Shown here: one piece after another, positions 24,247-45,026 of the stretch | Numbering within the stretch: the stretch's first letter is position 1 | Layout of the letters: every line of letters starts with the position of its first letter | NCBI GenBank assembly: GCA_025060615.1 | Contig: JANXBS010000013.1 | Coordinates: forward strand, 1-64,000 | DNA length: 64,000 nt | Origin: Anaerolineae bacterium | GTDB taxonomy: Bacteria > Chloroflexota > Anaerolineae > DUEN01 | Direction: 5' to 3' | Notes under the pieces: generated by a model | The model's input: the letters and a program-made list of their open reading frames with translations, nothing else | Databases searched by the model: none | Told to the model about the DNA's origin: nothing | Translations under genes and position numbers: made by a program

Positions 24247-25551
24247 TCACCGTCGCCCGCTTAATCCGAACAACTCGCGCAGGGCTTCCCCGTACTCGTC
24301 ACGGCCGTTGCTAGCGTACTCTTTGAGGCGCACGGTCGGCTCGTGCAGGATCTTCTGGACGATGCTGTGCGTCATGGCGACGATGATGCGGCGCTCCGAT
24401 TCGCTCAGGTGGGGCAGGCGCGAAAGCGTCTTTTGGAGTTCTTCCCTCGCAATGGCCTCCGCCTTCGAACGCAGCTCTTTCAGCGTAGGGACAACGCGCT
24501 GCATGCGCAGCCAGGCCAGGTATTCCTCGGCCTCCTCGATGACGATGGCTTCCACCTTAGGGACCTCACGGCGGCGCTCGGCTAAGCTCTCATCGGTGAT
24601 AGAGCGCAGGTCGTCTATGTCGTACAGATAGACGTGTGGGATCTGCTCCACGGTCGGATCCACGTTGCGCGGGACGGCAATATCGATGAAGAAGAGCGGT
24701 CGTTCACCTCGCCCTGCCATGATCTGTCGTACGCCCTCTGCGTGGATGAGCGTGTGCGGCGCGGTGGCCGAGGTCAGGACGATGTCGGCCCAGCTCAGCG
24801 CCTCGCCAATCTGCTCCCAGGCTATGGCCGAGCCCCCGAAAGAGCGCGCCAATTCGTCGGCCCGCGCATAGGTTCGGCTGATAACCCGGAACTCGGATGC
24901 GCCTGCAGCGGCCAAGCTATGGGCCGCCGCCTCTGCCATCTCACCGGCGCCCACCAGAAGCACGCGGCGCCCCTTCAGGTCGCCCAAGACCTGCAACGCC
25001 AGCGCAACGGCGGCGTTGCTCACAGAGGTGGGATGCCGTCCGATCGCTGTCTCGGTGCGAGCACGCTTGCCGGCATGAATGGCCTGGCGGAAGAGCGCTG
25101 ACAGGATGGGGCCAATCGTCCCTATCGCCAAGGCGGCCTGATACGCGTCGGCGACCTGGCCGAGGATCTGCGGCTCTCCCAGGACCATGGAGTCGAGCCC
25201 AGCTGCCACCCGCAAGAGGTGGCGGACAGCTCCCTCGGCTTCATGCCGGTACAGATGGGCGCTTAACGCCGTCGGTGGGAAGCCTCCCAGGTCGGCCAAG
25301 AATCGCTCGATCCGCCCGATGATCCCTGTATCGTCGTCACCAACAGCGGCGTATATCTCCAGACGGTTACAGGTGGAGAGAATGGCCCCTTCACCCCGTG
25401 CCAGACAGCTGTGACGAGCCTGCCCTGGCATCTGCAAGAGGGCCTGGAGGCTTTCTAGCGCCGCGTGCAGCGCCTCCCCGCTCAACGCTACCCGCTCACG
25501 GACGTGAATAGGTGCCGTGGTATGATTCATCCCGACCAGAAGGATCCTCAT
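24247..25551 (-). CDS. hemA: Glutamyl-tRNA reductase
   Basis: HemA reduces glutamyl-tRNA to glutamate-1-semialdehyde, the first committed step of the C5 heme pathway. The nucleophilic cysteine is in STCNRLEIYA. The NADPH domain shows RVLLVGAGEMAEAAAHSL and VLTSATAPHTLI, and the dimerisation helix is C-terminal. The start at ATG 25551 follows GGAGG and gives the typical MRILLVGMNHTTAPI. It is first in the hemACDB operon; hemL is not in the window. Confidence 0.96.
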   Translation of the reverse strand: MRILLVGMNHTTAPIHVRERVALSGEALHAALESLQALLQMPGQARHSCLARGEGAILSTCNRLEIYAAVGDDDTGIIGRIERFLADLGGFPPTALSAHLYRHEAEGAVRHLLRVAAGLDSMVLGEPQILGQVADAYQAALAIGTIGPILSALFRQAIHAGKRARTETAIGRHPTSVSNAAVALALQVLGDLKGRRVLLVGAGEMAEAAAHSLAAAGASEFRVISRTYARADELARSFGGSAIAWEQIGEALSWADIVLTSATAPHTLIHAEGVRQIMAGRGERPLFFIDIAVPRNVDPTVEQIPHVYLYDIDDLRSITDESLAERRREVPKVEAIVIEEAEEYLAWLRMQRVVPTLKELRSKAEAIAREELQKTLSRLPHLSESERRIIVAMTHSIVQKILHEPTVRLKEYASNGRDEYGEALRELFGLSGRR

Positions 25552-25657
25552 CCCGCCTCCACTTATGCTCTCAGGCCCAGACTGAAAAACCCCAGAAACT
25601 ACAAAATCTACAAAACACGTCATCAGAATATAGCGCAGGAGCCGCGGTACGTCAAGG

Positions 25658-25685
25658 TTGACAACTCTACGCAAACACATAAACT
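25658..25685 (+). promoter_or_regulatory. Promoter of the chaperonin gene
   Basis: TTGACA (25658-25663), a 16-nt spacer and TAAACT (25680-25685) lie about 70 nt upstream of the chaperonin start. No CIRCE-type inverted repeat is seen, so HrcA control is unlikely. Confidence 0.6.
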
Positions 25686-25758
25686 ACATGGGTGCGGCGA
25701 GGCGAGCAAGACCTCAAAGCCATCGCAGCCGCTCAATCTCCGGGGAGAGGGGAATACC

Positions 25759-27360
25759 ATGCCACAACCGCGCGTGCTGAACGCAGAGCAGGCTCAAAAA
25801 AGTTTGAAGCAAGGCATTGACCTAATGGCTGACCTCGTGAGCGTCACCCTGGGCCCACGAGGTGGGCTGGTCGCTCATACGCAGTTCGGGCGGTCCGAAC
25901 CAGAGCTTTTGACAGATGGCGCCACCATCGCCCGCCGGATCATCCAGATCCCCGATCGTAGTAAAGACGTGGGGGCCATGCTCCTCCGCCACATGGTCTG
26001 GCACATGCGCCAGGAGATGGGCGACGGAAGCGTGATCACAGCAGTGCTCACCCAGGCCATCCTGCGAGAGGCCCATCGCTGCATCACTGCTGGTGCCAAC
26101 GCCATGATAGTCCGACGGGGTCTAGAGCGCGCGCTGAGGGCAGCCGTGCAGGCGCTGCGCGATATGGCGATCCCCATCGCTGGCGAAGAGCAGATCGCCG
26201 CTTTGGCGACAGCTGTCACCGGAGACCCAGCGATGGGACGCATGTTGGGTGAGATCTTCGACATCCTGGGGCCCGAAGGTGCCCTAGTGGTCGAGGAGTA
26301 TGCCAGCACGTATCTCGAGCGCGAGTACGTGGAAGGTGCTCGCTGGAAAGGCAATTACGATTCGCCCTATTTCATCAACGACCCAGCCCGGCGGCGATGT
26401 GTTTTGGAGAATCCACGCATTTTGATCACCGACGCTCGTATCTCTGAGCTATCGGACATTCAGCCGATCATGGAGCAGATGATCCGGGCCAAAGCCGGCC
26501 CCCTGGCGATCATCGCCTGGGGCGTCTCTGGGGTGGCGCTGGGCACGTTGGTGACCAATAGCCAGCGCAACGTGCTCAAGGCGGTTTCCGTTAAGTTCGG
26601 CTTGCTCGGCGAGCATCGGCTGCGCGCTTTGGAGGACATGGCGATCATGACCGGCGCTCGCTTTATCACCGAGCAGGCTGGCATGAGGGTGGCTGATGCC
26701 ACGCTGGACGACCTAGGTCGGGCGCGGCGCATCGAGGTGGGCGAGAAGGAGTTCACCATCATCGGCGCGCAGGGTGACCCTGCCGCGATCCGGCGACGTC
26801 TGTCCCTCATCAAAACCGAGCTGCAACAGACCTCGAACCTGGAGGAGCGCGATAAGCTGCGGGAGCGCATCAATTGGCTTTCCGGCGGCATCGGCATCCT
26901 CAAGATCGGCGCGAGCTCAGCCAGGGAACGCGTGATTAAGAAGGAGCGCGCTCAGGAGGCGGCGAAGCTGATCGCGGCTGCAATGGAAGAGGGGGTGGTT
27001 CCCGGCGGTGGCGTGGCTTATCTGAACCTGATCCCCGCTGTGCGTGCCGTAGAAGCTGAGGGCGATGAGGCTTTCGGGGTGGAGATCCTGGCGCGAGCGC
27101 TGCAGGCCCCGGCTGAGCGGCTCTTACGTAACGCTGGGCTATACCCCCCGGTCATCATCCACGAGCTTCAGCGGCGCGGGCCGAATTACGGCTATAACGT
27201 GCTGACCGGAGAGGTGGTGGACATGATGAAAGCTGGCATTATGGACGCAGCCAAGGTGCTGCGCGTGGCGCTAGAGACGGCCGTCAGCGGCGCAACGATG
27301 GCCTTCACCGCAGGCGCGCTGATCTTGCGTCGCAAGCCTCCCGAAAGCTTTGAACCATAG
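25759..27360 (+). CDS. GroEL/Cpn60 paralogue
   Basis: This 533-residue type I chaperonin-like protein keeps the nucleotide motifs TLGPRGG, TDGATIARR and GDGSVITAVL, and near the end EEGVVPGGGVAYL and MDAAKVLRVALETAVSGA. Aligned by eye, the position of E. coli GroEL Asp398 (EDALHAT) is Glu (QEAAKLI). The Gly-Gly-Met tail is replaced by RRKPPESFEP. No groES is adjacent. It is probably a divergent second chaperonin rather than the housekeeping one. The start at ATG 25759 follows GGGGAGAGGGG. It is divergent from hemA. Confidence 0.88.
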   Translation: MPQPRVLNAEQAQKSLKQGIDLMADLVSVTLGPRGGLVAHTQFGRSEPELLTDGATIARRIIQIPDRSKDVGAMLLRHMVWHMRQEMGDGSVITAVLTQAILREAHRCITAGANAMIVRRGLERALRAAVQALRDMAIPIAGEEQIAALATAVTGDPAMGRMLGEIFDILGPEGALVVEEYASTYLEREYVEGARWKGNYDSPYFINDPARRRCVLENPRILITDARISELSDIQPIMEQMIRAKAGPLAIIAWGVSGVALGTLVTNSQRNVLKAVSVKFGLLGEHRLRALEDMAIMTGARFITEQAGMRVADATLDDLGRARRIEVGEKEFTIIGAQGDPAAIRRRLSLIKTELQQTSNLEERDKLRERINWLSGGIGILKIGASSARERVIKKERAQEAAKLIAAAMEEGVVPGGGVAYLNLIPAVRAVEAEGDEAFGVEILARALQAPAERLLRNAGLYPPVIIHELQRRGPNYGYNVLTGEVVDMMKAGIMDAAKVLRVALETAVSGATMAFTAGALILRRKPPESFEP

Positions 27361-27382
27361 TTTTACGCCAGGAGAGGAGCTC

Positions 27383-29269
27383 ATGGAACGCAAGACAGAT
27401 TCGCGTTGGATCAAATTAGGCCCTATTTACCCTGGCGGGACTGTGATGGCGTTGGCCGCGCACAGTGGCCCGGACGGAGATGTCTTCCTGGCTGCTACTC
27501 AGACAGGCATTTTTCGCTCGGAAGACGGTGGCCGGACCTGGAATGCCGCCAACGAGGGATTGCCGACGTTGCAGATCAGCGCGCTGGCCTTCGCTCCCAA
27601 CGGCACTGCCTTTGCCGGTGGGCTTACTGGTGGCGTCGCTATCTCGGCCAACTGCGGGCGCACTTGGTACACATCGCGCTCGGCTGGATTGGAGCAAGCG
27701 GTGACCACTATTGCGCCTTCGCCGCGCTACGCTGAGGACGCGACGGTGCTGGTCGGCACGGATGGTGGCGGCGTGATGCGTTCGGCTGACCGCGGCCATC
27801 ATTGGACGCCGGCCAACTTTCGGCTGGGGGATCTCCATGTGCTGGCGCTGGCCTGCGCGCCCGCGTGGGGCGATCACGAAGAGCTCTTCGCGGCCACGGT
27901 GGATGGCGTGTATCGCTCGACCAACGGCGGCCGCGCCTGGCGCGGAGCTGGTCAGGGATTAGAGGGAAAGGTCGTCCAGGCGCTGGCGGTGAGCCCTAAC
28001 TTCAGCCAAGACCGCACGCTCTTCGCCGGCACTGAGAGTGATGGTGTCTTTCGTTCCACCGATGCTGGGTTTTCCTGGGCGCCGAGCGGCGCAGGGACTG
28101 AGGGGCTCACCATTAACTGCCTGTGGATCTCGCCCGATTTCGCTCAAGATCGCACCATCCTGGCGGGCACCTCGGTCGGCATCCTATGTTCCACTGATGG
28201 CGGCGATACCTGGCGGATGGCATATCAGAGCGGGGATCCCGTGCTGGCGCTGGCGGGCTCCAGGGCTGCGGTGTGCGCCGGAACCATGGAGCAGGGGATT
28301 CTGCGCTCGAGCGATGGCGGCCGAACCTGGCATGTTTCTAATGAGGGGTTAGCAGCCCGCGCGTTCCTGCGCACGTTGACCGTGGCCGGACACCCTGGGC
28401 TGATCCTAGCCTTCGGCCCGCAGGAGGGCATCGTGCTCAGCGCCGACAGGTCCGGCAACTGGCAGCGAGTTCCTGGCCTGAGCGAATACCTGCCGCTTAG
28501 CGCGGTAGCGGCGGCCAATCAGGGGGTACATCGGCCACCATTATTGGTCGTCAGCACGGCGGAGGGACACATCTTACGCTCAGCAGATGCCGGCGTCACA
28601 TGGACGCCGTGCGCAGTAGGTATCCCTGCCACCACTCTGGTCTTTGACCGCAGCGGGCAGCGGGTTTGGGCGGCCACGGCCGACGGGTATCTGTTCGTGT
28701 CGCGGAATGGCGGCGTCTCTTGGGAGGGGCTGCCGCGGCCCCCGTTCGCCGGTGAATCGGTCCTCTCCGTGGTGCCCTCACCCTTCGTGGACGAGGATCA
28801 CACCCTCCTGGCGGGCTCTCTGGCACAGGGGAACACTAAGGCGCGCCTCTGGCGCTCACTGGACGATGGGCGGTCGTGGGAGCTGGTCTCAGAGGCCCCA
28901 ACCGAGGTGCCCTGGTTAGCGTTGGTGGCGCCACCCGTACGCAGCCGTCGGCCATATGACCGAGCCATCCTAGGTGCCGGACGCTCGTGCATCGTGTCTA
29001 CCGGGCAACAGAGGGACACCTGGAAGATCGTGCCAGTCGGCGACAAGGGAGCATCTGTGTTAAGCCTGGCCGTGGATGGACTCAGCCGCACGGTTTACGC
29101 TGGCACGAACCTGGGCCTCTATCACTCACAGGACACCGGGCGTACCTGGCACCTTGTATCGGGGCCGCTGGAAGGGCAGCCGATCCTCGACCTCCAGGTG
29201 GACGAGGCGGATCGCAGCCTCCTGATGTTGGTACCGGGCGGCACGCTATGGCGTTACCGAATCCGATAA
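27383..29269 (+). CDS. Asp-box (BNR/YCF48-like) beta-propeller protein, cytoplasmic
   Basis: This 628-residue protein consists of repeated beta-propeller blades. Asp-box motifs such as SEDGGRTW, SADRGHHW, STNGGRAW, STDGGDTW and SQDTGRTW recur about every 45-60 residues. The fold resembles sialidase-like, YCF48 or sortilin propellers and usually binds proteins or sugars. No signal peptide or catalytic signature is seen. It lies 22 nt after the chaperonin stop with its own AGGAGAGG site, so both are probably one transcript. Function is unknown. Confidence 0.78.
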   Translation: MERKTDSRWIKLGPIYPGGTVMALAAHSGPDGDVFLAATQTGIFRSEDGGRTWNAANEGLPTLQISALAFAPNGTAFAGGLTGGVAISANCGRTWYTSRSAGLEQAVTTIAPSPRYAEDATVLVGTDGGGVMRSADRGHHWTPANFRLGDLHVLALACAPAWGDHEELFAATVDGVYRSTNGGRAWRGAGQGLEGKVVQALAVSPNFSQDRTLFAGTESDGVFRSTDAGFSWAPSGAGTEGLTINCLWISPDFAQDRTILAGTSVGILCSTDGGDTWRMAYQSGDPVLALAGSRAAVCAGTMEQGILRSSDGGRTWHVSNEGLAARAFLRTLTVAGHPGLILAFGPQEGIVLSADRSGNWQRVPGLSEYLPLSAVAAANQGVHRPPLLVVSTAEGHILRSADAGVTWTPCAVGIPATTLVFDRSGQRVWAATADGYLFVSRNGGVSWEGLPRPPFAGESVLSVVPSPFVDEDHTLLAGSLAQGNTKARLWRSLDDGRSWELVSEAPTEVPWLALVAPPVRSRRPYDRAILGAGRSCIVSTGQQRDTWKIVPVGDKGASVLSLAVDGLSRTVYAGTNLGLYHSQDTGRTWHLVSGPLEGQPILDLQVDEADRSLLMLVPGGTLWRYRIR

Positions 29270-33249: not shown

Positions 33250-33253
<4 letters not shown>

Positions 33254-35040
33254 AACTCCCCGATGTCCCGATAGCGGAATCGTTCAATAAGGAGCAGGCC
33301 CGCGATGCACACCGCCATCAGCAATACACTCATCGCCAGCGCCTGACCATAATTCAGCGCGCCAGGCTGGCCGAGGAAGCGATAGATCGCGATCGGCATC
33401 GTCGGAAACTCGGGCCGGGCGATCAGGGCTGTGGCGCCGAACTCGCCCAAGCTGACGGTGAAGGCGAACACTGCGCCCACCAATATCGCCCGCCCTATGA
33501 TGGGCAGGTCCACCTGCAGCCATACCCGCATCGGCGAGGCTCCTAGCACGGTTGCGGCCTCGCGCCAGCGCGGGTTGAGCCCGCGCAGCACCGGCAGTAG
33601 CGAGCGCACCACAAACGGGAAAGCCACCAATGTGTGGGCTAGCGGTACCAGGGCAGGCGACGTGCGCAAGTTCAACGGCGGCTGATCCAGCGCCAGGATG
33701 AAGCCGAATCCCAGGGTGACGGCGGAGGTGCCCAGCGGCAACATAAAGATCGGGTCAAGCCATACTCCCGGACCTCGACGTGGCCGCGCCAGCAGATACG
33801 CGCCGGCCACACCGATCATGAGCGATAACCCCACCGTCGCCAACGCAAAGGCCAGCGAATTGCGGATGGCTTCGCTGGGCGGGACGAATAAGATGGAGCC
33901 GCGCCGGTCGAGAAATAGCTCCCCGTAATACCTCAGCGACCAGCCATCAGCCGTGGCCAGGGATCGCTCAACCAGGGAGATCAATGGAACCAGCAAAATC
34001 ACCAGCAAGGCCCCCAGGCTTAGGGCCACCAGCAGACGAGCGCGCCAGTCGCGAGCGGGGCGCTGTGCGGCCTCCTGAGGCCGAAAGTTCAGCGGCACGC
34101 TCGCGCGCGCCTGCCATCGGGTGTATAGCCCCATCACGCTGAAGGTGACGGCCATCTGTACAATGGAAAGGGTGGCGGCGATAGGGAGATGGAACAGGTG
34201 CACCGTCTGACGATAGATTTCAACCTCCAGCGTGGCAAAACGGGGGCCGCCCAATACCAAGATCACGCCGAATGAGGTAAAGCAGAAGAGGAAGACCAAG
34301 GAAGTGGCTGCGCCTAGCGCCGGCGTCAGTAAGGGCAGGGTTACATGGCGAAAGGTACGCCAGCGATCAGCTCCCAGCACCTGGGCGGCCTCTTCCAGCC
34401 GAGGATCCAAGTTAGCCCAGAATCCCCCGACGATGCGCACGACGATAGTAGCGTTGTAGAAGGCGTGAGCCAGCAGGATGATCCAGATCGTCTGTGTCAG
34501 ACGGATCGGCGGTTGTTCCAAGCTGAACAGCTCCATCAACCAGGTGTTCAGCCAGCCGCGAGGGCCCAATAGGCTGGTGAACGCCGCCGCCACCACCAGC
34601 GTGGGCAGGACAAATGGCACGGTCGTAAGGGCGCGCAGGAAGTTTTTTCCTGGAAACGAGTAGCGGGCGAAGGCATAGGCGGCTGGCAGCCCCAAGACGA
34701 GGGTGAGCGCAGTGGACGCGGCCGCCTGCCAGGCTGTGAACCAGAGCACACGTCCGTAGTACCCATCGGCGACGAGCGCGCGCAGCGGCTGCAGGTCGAA
34801 AACCCCTTCCGGCGCCAGGCTGAGCCGGAAGATCTCCATCAACGGATAGAAAAAGAAAACGGCCAGATAGGCTAAGGGAGACCACAGGACCACAGACGAC
34901 AGACGACGGACGATGGACGACGGATCACAGGTGACGGATAATAGGCGCGATGGACGAAAGGTCGGCAGGGACAGCGCCCTATCCCTGCCGCCCATCGTCT
35001 GCCGTCCCATATCCGTCGTCCATCGTTCATCCTTCATCAT
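33250..35040 (-). CDS. thiP: ABC transporter double permease, thiamine uptake (ThiP-like)
   Basis: This two-domain permease has about 12 membrane helices. Each half carries an EAA loop: EEAAQVLGADRWRTFRHVTLPLL and, in the second half, REAATVLGASPMRVWLQVDLPII. Two fused BPD permease domains are the ThiP layout. The first 49 codons of this frame lie in a palindromic repeat (34890-35046) and look non-native. The protein proper begins near GTG 34893 (VVLWSPLAYLAVFFFYPLMEIF), but no ribosome site is visible there, so the longer frame is listed. Confidence 0.85.
34910..35026. repeat. Nested inverted repeat at the 5' end of the permease gene
   Basis: A 16-bp perfect inverted repeat (ACGATGGACGACGGAT at 34910-34925 and its complement at 35011-35026) encloses an inner GGCAGGGA/TCCCTGCC hairpin. 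Flanks are rich in GACGACGGA/GTCGTCCAT words. Similar words occur at 22458-22494, 50288-50335 and 60836-60868. It probably represents a family of dispersed palindromic repeats. Confidence 0.7.
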
Positions 35041-35050
35041 CCGCCGTCCA

Positions 35051-36127
35051 TCATCTCAGCACGGTGGTCGTCCAGGCCTCAATCCACTTCTCGCGGCCGG
35101 CATCAATCGCCGCTGGCGAGATCTGAGCTGGCGCAGCAGGCACCTGGGCGAACTTCGTGAACACCTCCGGCAGCGCCGCGTTCGGATTCGCCGGGTAGAC
35201 CCACATCTGCAGGGGAATATCCTCCTGGAACGCCCGACTGAGCATGAAGTCCACCAGCTTGCGGGCGAGCTCCGGCTGCTTGGCCCCCTTCAAGATGCCC
35301 ACGAACTCGATCTGACGGAAGCTGCCGCCTTCAGGGAGGATGTTGCCGGTGGGCGACTCGTCCAATGGTTGCTCGCTGAAGTATACCTCAGCGGCAGGGC
35401 TGGTGGCGTAGGAGACCACGAGAGGGCGTGTGCCCTCGCCGGAGCCGCCGCTGAACTGCCCGTAGTAAGCGTCCTCCCAGCCGTCGGTGACATAGACGTC
35501 ATTCTCGCGGAGCTTGCGCCAGAAGTCCAGATACCCCTCCTCACCAAAGTAGGCCACGGTAGTGATGAGGAAGGAAAGGCCTGGGGAAGAAGTGGCCGGG
35601 TTTTCCACCACCAATAGCCCTTTATACTCCGGCTTGGTCAGGTCCTCCAGGGTCTGTGGCACAGCCAGCCCCTTCTCAGCGAAGTAGGCTTTGTCGTAGT
35701 TCAGGCAGACATAGCCGAAGTCCACAGGCAACAGGCGATGCTCCGGGTCGAGCTCCAGCTCGTCGGGGATTTCGGCAAGCCCGGGCGCCTCGTACGGCTC
35801 GAAAATATCCGCGGCGATGGCCCGGCCGAAGAAGGTATTGTCCACGCCGAAGAACACATCGGCCAGCGGGTTGTCCTTGCTCAGGATCGCCTGATTGAGA
35901 GCCGAGCCGGCATCGCCGGCCTTCAAGATCTTCCACGTAGCGCCGGTTTCAGCTTCGAACTGCTGTACCAGCGATTCGCTCACAGCGAAGCTGTCATGGG
36001 TCATCAGTGTGACCACTGGGCGCTCGACGGCCGGCCTAGGGGTAGCCGTGGGCAGTGGGCTTCCCGTAGGCACAGCACAGGCTACCAACAAAGCCACAAG
36101 CAGCGCTAAACTGATCCAAGTTCGCAT
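35051..36127 (-). CDS. thiB: Thiamine ABC transporter substrate-binding lipoprotein
   Basis: This 358-residue binding protein starts at ATG 36127 after AAGGAGG. A lipoprotein signal ends in [10 protein letters not shown] (lipobox Cys about residue 17), so the mature protein is membrane-tethered outside. The body matches thiamine/Fe-type binding proteins ([50 protein letters not shown]). This VTLMTHDSF start is typical of ThiB. It follows the pyrophosphokinase gene and precedes the permease and ATPase. Confidence 0.92.
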
Positions 36128-36226
36128 TTCCGCCTCCTTACATTCCATCTAGGAAAGTTGATAGGCCTTCATCCAGCGAAAGGCACTGCCCTCGCCTACC
36201 CGTTACCTGTAAACCGCGATCCCCTC

Positions 36227-36957: not shown

Positions 36958-36972
36958 TTGATCTATGGCTTC

Positions 36973-37081
36973 TGCAATCCCTACGCCGGCATTACCCAGG
37001 TCAGGTTCAAGGGGTCAACGGCAGGCCAGGCAATCCTGGAATCCGTCCTCTCAGCCGGGTTACCTCCCAGCTCCCCCTGCA
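36973..37081 (-). promoter_or_regulatory. TPP riboswitch (THI element)
   Basis: The minus strand carries the conserved blocks GGGGGAGC, GGCTGAGAGGA, GACCCCTTGAACCTGACCTGG and GTAATGCCGGCGTAGGGA in order. A short P1 formed by TGCA/TGCA closes the element. Position and order match the thi-box aptamer that binds thiamine pyrophosphate. It controls the downstream thiamine salvage operon through the terminator at 36927-36957. Confidence 0.96.
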
Positions 37082-37166
37082 TCACCCAAGTAATTCGATT
37101 GTAAACAAAGTGTAGCACGTTTCCGTGAGCGCGTCAAACCATCCAGGCTCGCGCTTTGCCTTCTGC

Positions 37167-42568: not shown

Positions 42569-42684
42569 ATAACTGTTAGGTAGAGAATGACATGAAAGGG
42601 GCTTTTGGTCAAGTCTCTGGTGGCCTTGGATTGCCGATGATCCATGGGCATGCTATACTGAACGCAGCTCGGATAGGTGGTCAT

Positions 42685-43656
42685 ATGAGTGCTCGGGTTC
42701 TGGGGCGCGGGAGCGCGCCCGGCAAGGTGATCCTATTGGGAGAACATGCGGTGGTATATGGTCGGCCGGCCATCGCCGTGCCGGTGACGCGCGTACAAGC
42801 TGAGGCGGTGGTGACTTCTGGCCTGCCGGGTGAGGGCTTGTCCATCCACGCGCTCGACCTCGGACAGGTGATCTCGCTGACAACGGCGCCGCGCGATCAC
42901 CCGCTGGCGGCCATCGCGCGAGCGGCCCTGCATGAGCTAGGCATCTCACCGATGCCCGATTGGATAGTGAGCGTGCGTTCAACGATCCCCATTGCGGCCG
43001 GCATGGGCAGCGGCGCGGCTGTCTCGGCGGCCATCGCACGGGCGTTGGCGGCGGCCGCGGGCTACGAGCTCCCCACCCATGCTGTATCCGAGCTGGTCTA
43101 CCGGGTGGAGCATCTGCACCATGGTACTCCCTCTGGGATTGACAACACTGTGGTCAGTTATGCCTGCCCAATTTATTTCGTTAAAGGGCGATCCCCACAG
43201 CCGTTGCGTATCGCCCGACCCTTCTGGCTGGTGATCGGCGATACGGGGGTGCCCAGCCCGACCAAGACAGCGGTGCTGGAGGTGCGCCAAGCGTGGGAGG
43301 CCGATCCGACCCGCTTCGAAGAGCTATTCGATCGGATCGCGGCCCTCGTTGAGGTTGCCCGCACGGCTATTGAAGCGGGAGCTGTCGAGGCGCTGGGGCC
43401 ACTGATGACTGAGAATCAGGCGCTGCTGCGTGAGATCGGCGTCAGCTCCCCAGAACTGGAGCGGCTGATCGAGGCCGCTCGTGCTGCGGGCGCGAGCGGG
43501 GCCAAGCTGGTGGGCGCCGGCCGCGGCGGCAACATGATCGCCCTGGCTGAGCCTGACCGGGCAGAGGCGATCGCGGCGGCCCTGCGTGCCGCCGGCGCCG
43601 TGCGCACGATCGTCACTCAGGTGGATGGAAGCTCAGACCCCCGTGATCTGTTGTAG
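42685..43656 (+). CDS. mvk: Mevalonate kinase
   Basis: This GHMP kinase phosphorylates mevalonate to mevalonate 5-phosphate. It has SAPGKVILLGEHAVVYGRPAIAVPV, the ATP motif IPIAAGMGSGAAVSAAIA, HHGTPSGIDNTVVSYACP and the C-terminal KLVGAGRGGNMIAL. The 323-residue length fits bacterial and archaeal enzymes. The start at ATG 42685 follows AGGTGG; an upstream ATG would add residues absent from the family. A UbiD-family gene follows after 14 nt, which points to isoprenoid synthesis through mevalonate. Confidence 0.93.
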   Translation: MSARVLGRGSAPGKVILLGEHAVVYGRPAIAVPVTRVQAEAVVTSGLPGEGLSIHALDLGQVISLTTAPRDHPLAAIARAALHELGISPMPDWIVSVRSTIPIAAGMGSGAAVSAAIARALAAAAGYELPTHAVSELVYRVEHLHHGTPSGIDNTVVSYACPIYFVKGRSPQPLRIARPFWLVIGDTGVPSPTKTAVLEVRQAWEADPTRFEELFDRIAALVEVARTAIEAGAVEALGPLMTENQALLREIGVSSPELERLIEAARAAGASGAKLVGAGRGGNMIALAEPDRAEAIAAALRAAGAVRTIVTQVDGSSDPRDLL

Positions 43657-43670
43657 GTCGTCTGGTGATC

Positions 43671-45026
43671 ATGAGCGATCCGTTTCCTTCCCTTCGTACG
43701 TTCTTGGCCCAGGCTGAAGCGGCCGGTTACCTGTTGACCATCCGCCGGCCGGTGAGCCCGCGTCTGGAGATGGCGCAGGTCATCTACGCGCTGGATGGCC
43801 GTCCGGTGCTGTTCACCAACGTGCCGGATAGCGACTATCGCGTGGCCTCCGGCGTCTGCTCCGACCGGCGGTATTTCGCCATGGCGCTGGGATGTCGTCC
43901 TGAACAGCTCCTGTTCCGCCTGGCCGATGCCCTGGCCGCTCCCCAAACGCCGCCAATCGTCACCGACGCGCCCTGTCAGGAGGTCGTGGAGGGCGAGGTG
44001 GATCTCACTCGCCTCCCTTTCCTCACGCACTGGGAGGGGGATGCGGGGCCGTATGCCACGGCCGCCGTTGCCATCGTCAGTGATCCGGACACGGGCCCGA
44101 ATGCCTCATATCACCGGCTGCTTCGGCTGGATCAGCGCCGGTGCGTGGCGCGCATCGTCGAGGGACGGGGCACCGATACGGCCTGGCGTAAAACTTCAGG
44201 CGATCTGCCGGTGGCGATTTGTATCGGGCTACCCCTACATGTGTTGCTGGCCGCGTCTATGGCGCCGCCGCCGGGGGTAGACGAGATGCGCATCGCCCAC
44301 GCGCTGGCTCCCACGCCGCTGGTGCAATGCCGAACGGTGCCATTGCAAGTGCCGGCGGCAGCAGAGATCGTCCTAGAGGGGCGCATCATCCGACGTCTGG
44401 CCACCGAGGGGCCGTTTGTGGACCTAACGGGCACCTGGGACCTCATTCGGCAGCAGCCGGTGATCGAGGTTGACTGTATCACTCACCGCCGCGACGCCAT
44501 CTACCATGCATTGCTCCCTGGCCAGCGAGAGCATCGCCTGCTGATGGGAATGCCGCGGGAGCCGACCATTTTCGCTGCGGTCAACCAGGTGTGCGAGTGC
44601 CTGAACGTGCATATCACGCCAGGGGGCACGTCTTGGTTGCACGCGGTGGTGCAGATCCGCAAACGTCGCCCGGACGATGGCCGGCGCGCTGCCGAGGCTG
44701 CGTTTCGGGGACACGGATCGCTCAAGCACGTATGGGTGGTGGACGAGGACATCAACCCGTTCGACCCTGCTGAGGTAGAGTGGGCGATGGCGACCCGCTT
44801 TCAGGCCGACCGTGACCTGCTCGTGTGGCGGGATCAGCCGTCAAGCTCGCTGGACCCTTCAGCCACGCACGTCCCGGGTCAGAAGTCTCGTTCGGCCAAG
44901 ATGGGGCTGGACTGTACGATCCCATGGGACACGCCCGATGGCCCTAGCAACCCGATGGCCTTCCGACGCGTGCCCATCCCGCGGATAGACCCAGCCCCGT
45001 ATCTGGACGATGGCGGCGCGCTTTGA
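43671..45026 (+). CDS. UbiD-family decarboxylase, candidate anhydromevalonate phosphate decarboxylase
   Basis: This 451-residue UbiD-type decarboxylase would need prenylated FMN. Family features include PVLFTNVPDSDYRVASGVCSDR, EVDLTRLPFLTHWEGDAGPY, LTGTWDL and GGTSWLHAVVQI. UbiD proteins act on aromatic or alpha,beta-unsaturated acids. Its position 14 nt behind mevalonate kinase suggests the archaeal role of decarboxylating trans-anhydromevalonate 5-phosphate to isopentenyl phosphate. That is inferred from context alone; ubiquinone/menaquinone-type or phenolic-acid roles remain possible. No UbiX or aconitase X gene is in the window. Confidence 0.85.
   Translation: MSDPFPSLRTFLAQAEAAGYLLTIRRPVSPRLEMAQVIYALDGRPVLFTNVPDSDYRVASGVCSDRRYFAMALGCRPEQLLFRLADALAAPQTPPIVTDAPCQEVVEGEVDLTRLPFLTHWEGDAGPYATAAVAIVSDPDTGPNASYHRLLRLDQRRCVARIVEGRGTDTAWRKTSGDLPVAICIGLPLHVLLAASMAPPPGVDEMRIAHALAPTPLVQCRTVPLQVPAAAEIVLEGRIIRRLATEGPFVDLTGTWDLIRQQPVIEVDCITHRRDAIYHALLPGQREHRLLMGMPREPTIFAAVNQVCECLNVHITPGGTSWLHAVVQIRKRRPDDGRRAAEAAFRGHGSLKHVWVVDEDINPFDPAEVEWAMATRFQADRDLLVWRDQPSSSLDPSATHVPGQKSRSAKMGLDCTIPWDTPDGPSNPMAFRRVPIPRIDPAPYLDDGGAL

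What the first reader, a model, noticed from the sequence alone, without database searches (positions are those of the whole stretch)
42685..45026. Mevalonate kinase followed by a UbiD decarboxylase: possible archaeal-type mevalonate pathway in a bacterium
The two genes are 14 nt apart on one strand. In the modified archaeal mevalonate pathway, mevalonate 5-phosphate is dehydrated by an aconitase X-type enzyme, then decarboxylated by a UbiD homologue to isopentenyl phosphate. A UbiD gene directly behind mevalonate kinase is what this route would predict, and bacterial use of it would be notable. The inference rests on gene order only.
Basis: partly seen in the sequence, partly recalled or inferred. 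Interest (0 to 1): 0.65.

Follow-up and report, generated by a model that had tools for sequence, protein, structure and literature searches.

The report
Archaeal-type isoprenoid pathway in a bacterium
This bacterium (probably a Chloroflexota) carries the full gene set for the archaeal version of the mevalonate pathway, apparently its only way to make isoprenoid building blocks; one such bacterium was already published in 2024, and the survey here suggests that about half of its class does the same.

Summary
Window 42685-43656 encodes mevalonate kinase and 43665/43671-45026 a UbiD decarboxylase, 8-14 nt apart. The same genome holds both aconitase-X subunits, isopentenyl phosphate kinase (its start overlaps the aconitase-X small-subunit gene by 4 nt), UbiX, HMG-CoA synthase and reductase, and type-2 IPP isomerase. 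It has no diphosphomevalonate decarboxylase and no IspH, so no known MEP route. The UbiD nests inside the archaeal clade of UbiDs encoded beside aconitase X (SH-aLRT 99), apart from quinone and aromatic UbiDs. Every published mevalonate-5-phosphate and Fe-S ligand residue of Thermococcus phosphomevalonate dehydratase is conserved. In 120 genomes of the class, the dehydratase and the decarboxylase MVD/PMD nearly exclude each other (49 only, 54 only, 8 both, 9 neither), and none has IspH. The contig is bacterial.

It is not new in kind. A 2026 review cites Kanno et al. 2024, who reported the archaeal mevalonate pathway in Candidatus Promineifilum breve (Chloroflexota); I could not read that paper. 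Added here: its breadth, alternation with the PMD route, probably two separate acquisitions from archaea, and a fused dehydratase in one family. Nothing here is biochemical.

The parts
42631..42659 (+). promoter-like site (TTGCCG-17-TATACT, extended -10) just upstream of mevalonate kinase; consensus match only
   Evidence: 1 found, 0.8 expected in shuffles; sequence
42685..43656 (+). mevalonate kinase (MVK), 323 aa: mevalonate to mevalonate 5-phosphate
   Evidence: TIGR00549 247 bits > cut-off 163; PDB mevalonate kinases are the best matches
43665..45026 (+). UbiD-family decarboxylase, inferred anhydromevalonate phosphate decarboxylase (AMPD); start GTG 43665 or ATG 43671
   Evidence: TIGR00148 351 bits; inside the archaeal AcnX-linked UbiD clade, SH-aLRT 99; carries the clade-invariant residues R163, D259, R262, G320, W324, S352

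Best explanation
The two genes are consecutive parts of an archaeal-type (modified) mevalonate pathway that is this bacterium's only recognisable route to IPP and DMAPP. Mevalonate kinase (window) makes mevalonate 5-phosphate. A heterodimeric [4Fe-4S] aconitase X (large subunit on the same contig at C13:76633-78024, small subunit at C12:122843-123292) dehydrates it to trans-anhydromevalonate 5-phosphate. The window UbiD, with prenylated FMN made by UbiX (C7:69772-70317), decarboxylates that to isopentenyl phosphate. Isopentenyl phosphate kinase (C12:122028-122846) makes IPP, and type-2 IPP isomerase (C12:128297-129391) makes DMAPP. Upstream, a thiolase, an archaeal-type HMG-CoA synthase and a DUF35-like protein sit next to HMG-CoA reductase on C23. 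Shown here: gene presence, absences, synteny, phylogeny, conserved ligands. Inferred: the actual reactions and flux, and that the AMPD and dehydratase genes were acquired from archaea.
For: Complete gene set. MVD absent; IspH absent in own genome and in all 120 class genomes, while 10 of 14 control genomes ring. AcnX-L is closer to TkPMDh (320 bits) than to C3LHyp dehydratase (242 bits); the small subunit likewise (132 vs 72 bits). All ligands reported for TkPMDh (PMC8184944) match: L-subunit G48 V49 S50 N53 N79 C110 E129 S130 S131 C283 C342 K361 Y365 and S-subunit L27 S62 T63 V64. The UbiD lies in a clade with archaeal UbiDs encoded beside AcnX (SH-aLRT 99), apart from HmfF, AroY and quinone UbiDs. 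AcnX-L groups with archaeal PMDh, not with the C3LHyp type found in the same class. Contiguous UbiD-AcnXL-AcnXS-IPK in about 14 class genomes; MVK, UbiD, AcnXL, AcnXS and IPK on one strand within 8 kb in G006 (L062); MVK-UbiD-AcnXL-AcnXS-IPK-IDI2-GGPPS in Bathyarchaeota (L122, L125, L128 and others). PMDh and MVD nearly mutually exclusive, Fisher p 7e-16. Contig C13 carries bacterial AlaRS, TsaD, MutL, PanC, FabF and a GroEL-like gene.
Against: No biochemistry, expression or metabolite data. The genome is a draft (97.8% complete, 73 contigs), so an absence could be a gap, although the same absences recur in its family and in some 40 other genomes at least 90% complete. The gene groups are unlinked (C13 twice, C12, C23, C7). 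The Fisher p ignores relatedness; at family level (genomes at least 90% complete) 15 families are PMDh-only and 17 MVD-only, 1 is uniformly both, and 8 are mixed in one or both traits. Eight genomes carry both. NCBIfam's best match for AcnX-L is C3LHyp dehydratase, far below its cut-off (338 vs 700 bits). No characterised AMPD sequence was in hand: the clade is anchored by linkage to AcnX in archaea.
Confidence: 0.93

Rival explanations
1. The UbiD is an ordinary quinone or aromatic-acid decarboxylase that happens to follow MVK.
For: Best solved relative is the UbiD 6h6x (284 bits), which I know as the furan-dicarboxylate decarboxylase HmfF, and UbiD family names are generic.
Against: It branches with archaeal AcnX-linked UbiDs, not with HmfF, AroY or quinone UbiDs. 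The genome has a separate E. coli UbiD-like gene on C14 (380 bits to 2idb). This UbiD type sits next to AcnX or MVK across the class.
Confidence: 0.03
2. [quoted passage not shown]
For: MVD-family genes occur in about half of the class, sometimes as MVK-MVD-IPK (L108/L241). C3LHyp-type AcnX also occurs in the class.
Against: No TIGR01240 match in this genome or in its three sampled family members. C3LHyp-type residues (D47 in L; W27 in S) are absent here, whereas the other AcnX type of the class has them. The AcnX-S and IPK genes overlap by 4 nt.
Confidence: 0.03
3. The genes come from an archaeal contaminant binned with a bacterial genome.
For: Draft genome in 73 contigs with 2.9% estimated contamination.
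Against: The genes lie deep inside contigs with bacterial markers, recur in about 57 of 120 related genomes, and form a class-specific group (82% identity to the family member G023).
Confidence: 0.01

Closest known systems
Archaeal mevalonate pathway of Candidatus Promineifilum breve (Chloroflexota), Kanno et al. 2024, Appl Environ Microbiol 90:e01106-24, known here only as reference 64 of PMC13001223
   Same: By its title, the same pathway in the bacterial phylum inferred for this genome
   Different: Different organism; gene arrangement and enzyme data could not be compared because the paper is not held
Modified mevalonate pathway of Aeropyrum pernix (Hayakawa et al. 2018) and Thermococcus PMDh (7cnr/7cns; PMC8184944, PMC10040528)
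   Same: Same enzyme set; all PMDh ligand and Fe-S residues conserved; UbiD in the archaeal clade
   Different: Host is a bacterium; PMDh large and small subunit genes are on different contigs, the small one overlapping IPK; HMG-CoA reductase matches the 'degradative' model TIGR00532
Roseiflexus castenholzii phosphomevalonate decarboxylase + IPK route (Dellas et al. 2013, PMC3857490)
   Same: Chloroflexota, mevalonate-based, uses IPK
   Different: One ATP-dependent GHMP-family decarboxylase does the step done here by AcnX plus UbiD; that gene is absent here

Membership tests
Archaeal-type (modified) mevalonate pathway | Mevalonate kinase | tested here: met
   TIGR00549 over cut-off
Archaeal-type (modified) mevalonate pathway | Both aconitase X subunits of the PMDh type, with the MVA5P and [4Fe-4S] ligands | tested here: met
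Archaeal-type (modified) mevalonate pathway | UbiD homologue in the AMPD clade | tested here: met
   SH-aLRT 99; clade-invariant residues
Archaeal-type (modified) mevalonate pathway | UbiX for the prenylated FMN cofactor | tested here: met
   TIGR00421 232 bits > 108.9 at C7:69772-70317
Archaeal-type (modified) mevalonate pathway | Isopentenyl phosphate kinase | tested here: met
   NF040647 164.7 bits > 120; PDB IPKs are the best matches
Archaeal-type (modified) mevalonate pathway | No diphosphomevalonate/phosphomevalonate decarboxylase | tested here: met
   No TIGR01240 match; draft genome 97.8% complete
Archaeal-type (modified) mevalonate pathway | Enzymes carry out the named reactions | not testable with these tools
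   needs purified enzymes or complementation
Classical (eukaryote-type) mevalonate pathway | Diphosphomevalonate decarboxylase | tested here: not met
Classical (eukaryote-type) mevalonate pathway | Phosphomevalonate kinase | not tested
[quoted passage not shown]
   A47 and L27 here; D and W in the other AcnX type of the class
MEP pathway | IspH (LytB) | tested here: not met
   0 of 120 class genomes including this one

The most novel reading that the evidence does not exclude
The archaeal mevalonate pathway is not an oddity of one Chloroflexota species. It is the sole IPP route in about half of a large bacterial class, acquired from archaea at least twice, and exchanged repeatedly with the PMD/MVD route. 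One family (f35) encodes a phosphomevalonate dehydratase with large and small domains fused in the order large-small, a form not described in the papers read here.
Probability: 0.6. Interest if true: 0.58.

Novelty: new member of a known kind. Interest (0 to 1): 0.42.

Why it matters
A 2023 paper still calls this pathway unique to archaea (PMC10040528), and a 2024 phylogenomic study mentions Chloroflexota only for the haloarchaea-type route and its decarboxylase (PMC11052028). If the class-wide picture holds, many bacteria make isoprenoids by an ATP-saving, oxygen-sensitive route taken from archaea. Their alternation with the PMD route would offer a natural series for asking when and why a cell swaps one essential pathway for another. 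Bacterial dehydratases, fused ones included, may also be useful for engineered terpenoid production, where the reconstructed archaeal pathway works only under nearly anaerobic conditions (PMC10040528).

Tried and rejected
The named-organism scan used TkPMDh as first row to obtain archaeal references and returned archaea only, so neither the window's species nor its class could be named. Rfam on 141 kb of own sequence gave only tRNAs and a TPP riboswitch, no marker for taxonomy. Quinone/aromatic UbiD, C3LHyp dehydratase and contamination were considered and rejected. The first literature searches found no bacterial case; a search on the single word 'anhydromevalonate' then led to PMC13001223, which cites the 2024 report, so an initial reading of 'first in Bacteria' was dropped. 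Hayakawa 2018 and Kanno 2024 are not held. The UbiD tree is a quick one without bootstrap, with long branches among the outgroups. No structure was predicted: sequence homology to solved AcnX was already strong and no solved AMPD was recognised.

Full report
OBSERVATION. The window encodes mevalonate kinase at 42685-43656 (+) and a UbiD-family decarboxylase at 43665/43671-45026 (+). The gap is 8 nt from the GTG start or 14 nt from the ATG start. A promoter-like site at 42631-42659 lies just before the MVK start, which favours 42685 over the upstream in-frame ATG at 42592.

REST OF THE PATHWAY IN THE SAME GENOME. The window is contig C13:1-64000 of a 3.86-Mb draft genome (97.8% complete, 2.9% contamination). 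Aconitase X large subunit: C13:76633-78024, 12.6 kb beyond the window. Aconitase X small subunit: C12:122843-123292; isopentenyl phosphate kinase: C12:122028-122846, overlapping the small-subunit gene by 4 nt. Type-2 IPP isomerase and a polyprenyl diphosphate synthase lie about 4 kb away on the same strand. HMG-CoA reductase is on C23 beside an archaeal-type HMG-CoA synthase (TIGR00748 539 bits; 411 bits to 6esq), a thiolase and a DUF35-like protein. UbiX is on C7. Diphosphomevalonate decarboxylase is absent. IspH is absent here and in all 119 sampled class relatives, while 10 of 14 control genomes ring.

AcnX IS OF THE PHOSPHOMEVALONATE DEHYDRATASE TYPE. [quoted passage not shown] the small subunit 132 against 72. 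The crystal-structure paper (PMC8184944) names the mevalonate 5-phosphate and Fe-S ligands. All are conserved here. A second AcnX type in the class carries the C3LHyp residues instead. In the tree, 35 class sequences plus one archaeal (Micrarchaeota) sequence form a group (SH-aLRT 99) among archaeal PMDhs.

THE UbiD IS IN THE AMPD CLADE. Many archaeal AcnX loci carry a UbiD next to AcnX. In Bathyarchaeota the order is MVK-UbiD-AcnXL-AcnXS-IPK-IDI2-GGPPS. The window UbiD scores up to about 497 bits to these, and about 125-140 to the genome's other UbiD, which is E. coli UbiD-like (380 bits to 2idb). In a 128-row tree, archaeal AcnX-linked UbiDs and the class UbiDs form one group (SH-aLRT 99) that excludes HmfF, AroY, the quinone UbiDs and other UbiDs of the class. 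Six residues are invariant in all 81 members of the group and rare outside it: R163, D259, R262, G320, W324, S352 in window numbering. That the two arginines bind the substrate phosphate is a guess.

CLASS SURVEY. Of 120 class genomes, 57 have the PMDh-type small subunit or the fused form and 62 an MVD-family gene (7 of them below the curated cut-off): 49 PMDh only, 54 MVD only, 8 both, 9 neither (Fisher p 7e-16, not corrected for relatedness). By family, among genomes at least 90% complete, 15 families are PMDh-only and 17 MVD-only, 1 is uniformly both, and 8 are mixed in one or both traits. IPK passes its cut-off in 105 of 120. MVK sits upstream of the AMPD-type UbiD on the same strand in about 18 class loci, window included. 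About 14 genomes have UbiD-AcnXL-AcnXS-IPK contiguous. Outside the class only one sampled genome of the phylum (G129) has a PMDh-like small subunit by score.

ORIGIN. The class AMPDs and AcnX-L lie within archaeal diversity. In family f22 both genes (G021; AMPD also in G057) group with a different archaeal set (L157, L178, L187) than the rest of the class, which suggests a second transfer. The contig is bacterial by AlaRS, TsaD, MutL, PanC, FabF and a GroEL-like gene.

PRIOR KNOWLEDGE. PMC10040528 (2023) calls the pathway unique to archaea, and PMC11052028 (2024) places Chloroflexota under the haloarchaea-type route. But PMC13001223 (2026) states that some Chloroflexota encode an archaeal-type pathway and cites Kanno et al. 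2024 on Candidatus Promineifilum breve, which could not be read. So this locus is a further member of a published case.

LIMITS. No reaction was tested. Trees are quick ones without bootstrap. The draft genome leaves absences slightly uncertain, though they recur in relatives. Phosphomevalonate kinase was not searched for separately.

Noticed in passing
L072:8520-10310, L220:10360-12204, L221:5474-7324, L222:6315-8129 (family f35): A divergent aconitase X with large and swivel domains fused in the order large-small, following the AMPD-type UbiD (directly in three of four loci), in genomes without an MVD match. It has the PMDh-like residue pattern (GVS, three Cys, small-domain L-S-S/T-V) except N131. 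Possible fused phosphomevalonate dehydratase.
   Followed up: partly
L021/L064 (G021) and L235 (G057), family f22: AMPD, and in G021 also AcnX-L, group with archaeal sequences different from those nearest the rest of the class; G021 also has an MVD. Looks like a second, independent acquisition.
   Followed up: partly
genomes G001, G013, G021, G040, G063, G072, G085, G091: Eight class genomes carry both a PMDh-type aconitase X small subunit and an MVD-family decarboxylase over the cut-off, so both routes may coexist or be in transition.
   Followed up: no
L254:5995-10204 (C23): HMG-CoA reductase of the 'degradative' model (TIGR00532) lies beside an archaeal-type HMG-CoA synthase, a thiolase and a DUF35-like protein, resembling the archaeal thiolase/HMGCS complex 6esq.
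   Followed up: partly
L057:15191-16222 (C12): The polyprenyl diphosphate synthase near IDI2 matches best the family 2 encapsulin cargo polyprenyl transferase model (336 bits, below its cut-off of 450).
   Followed up: no
window 25465-29269: Two adjacent long same-strand ORFs (631 and 639 aa); the first is GroEL-like with an N-terminal extension of about 100 aa, below the GroEL equivalog cut-off (437 vs 582 bits). The second was not checked.
   Followed up: no
window 36960-37087 (-): TPP riboswitch (RF00059, 64 bits) on the strand of the genes at 33250-36148, which include an ABC permease that matches ThiP models.
   Followed up: no
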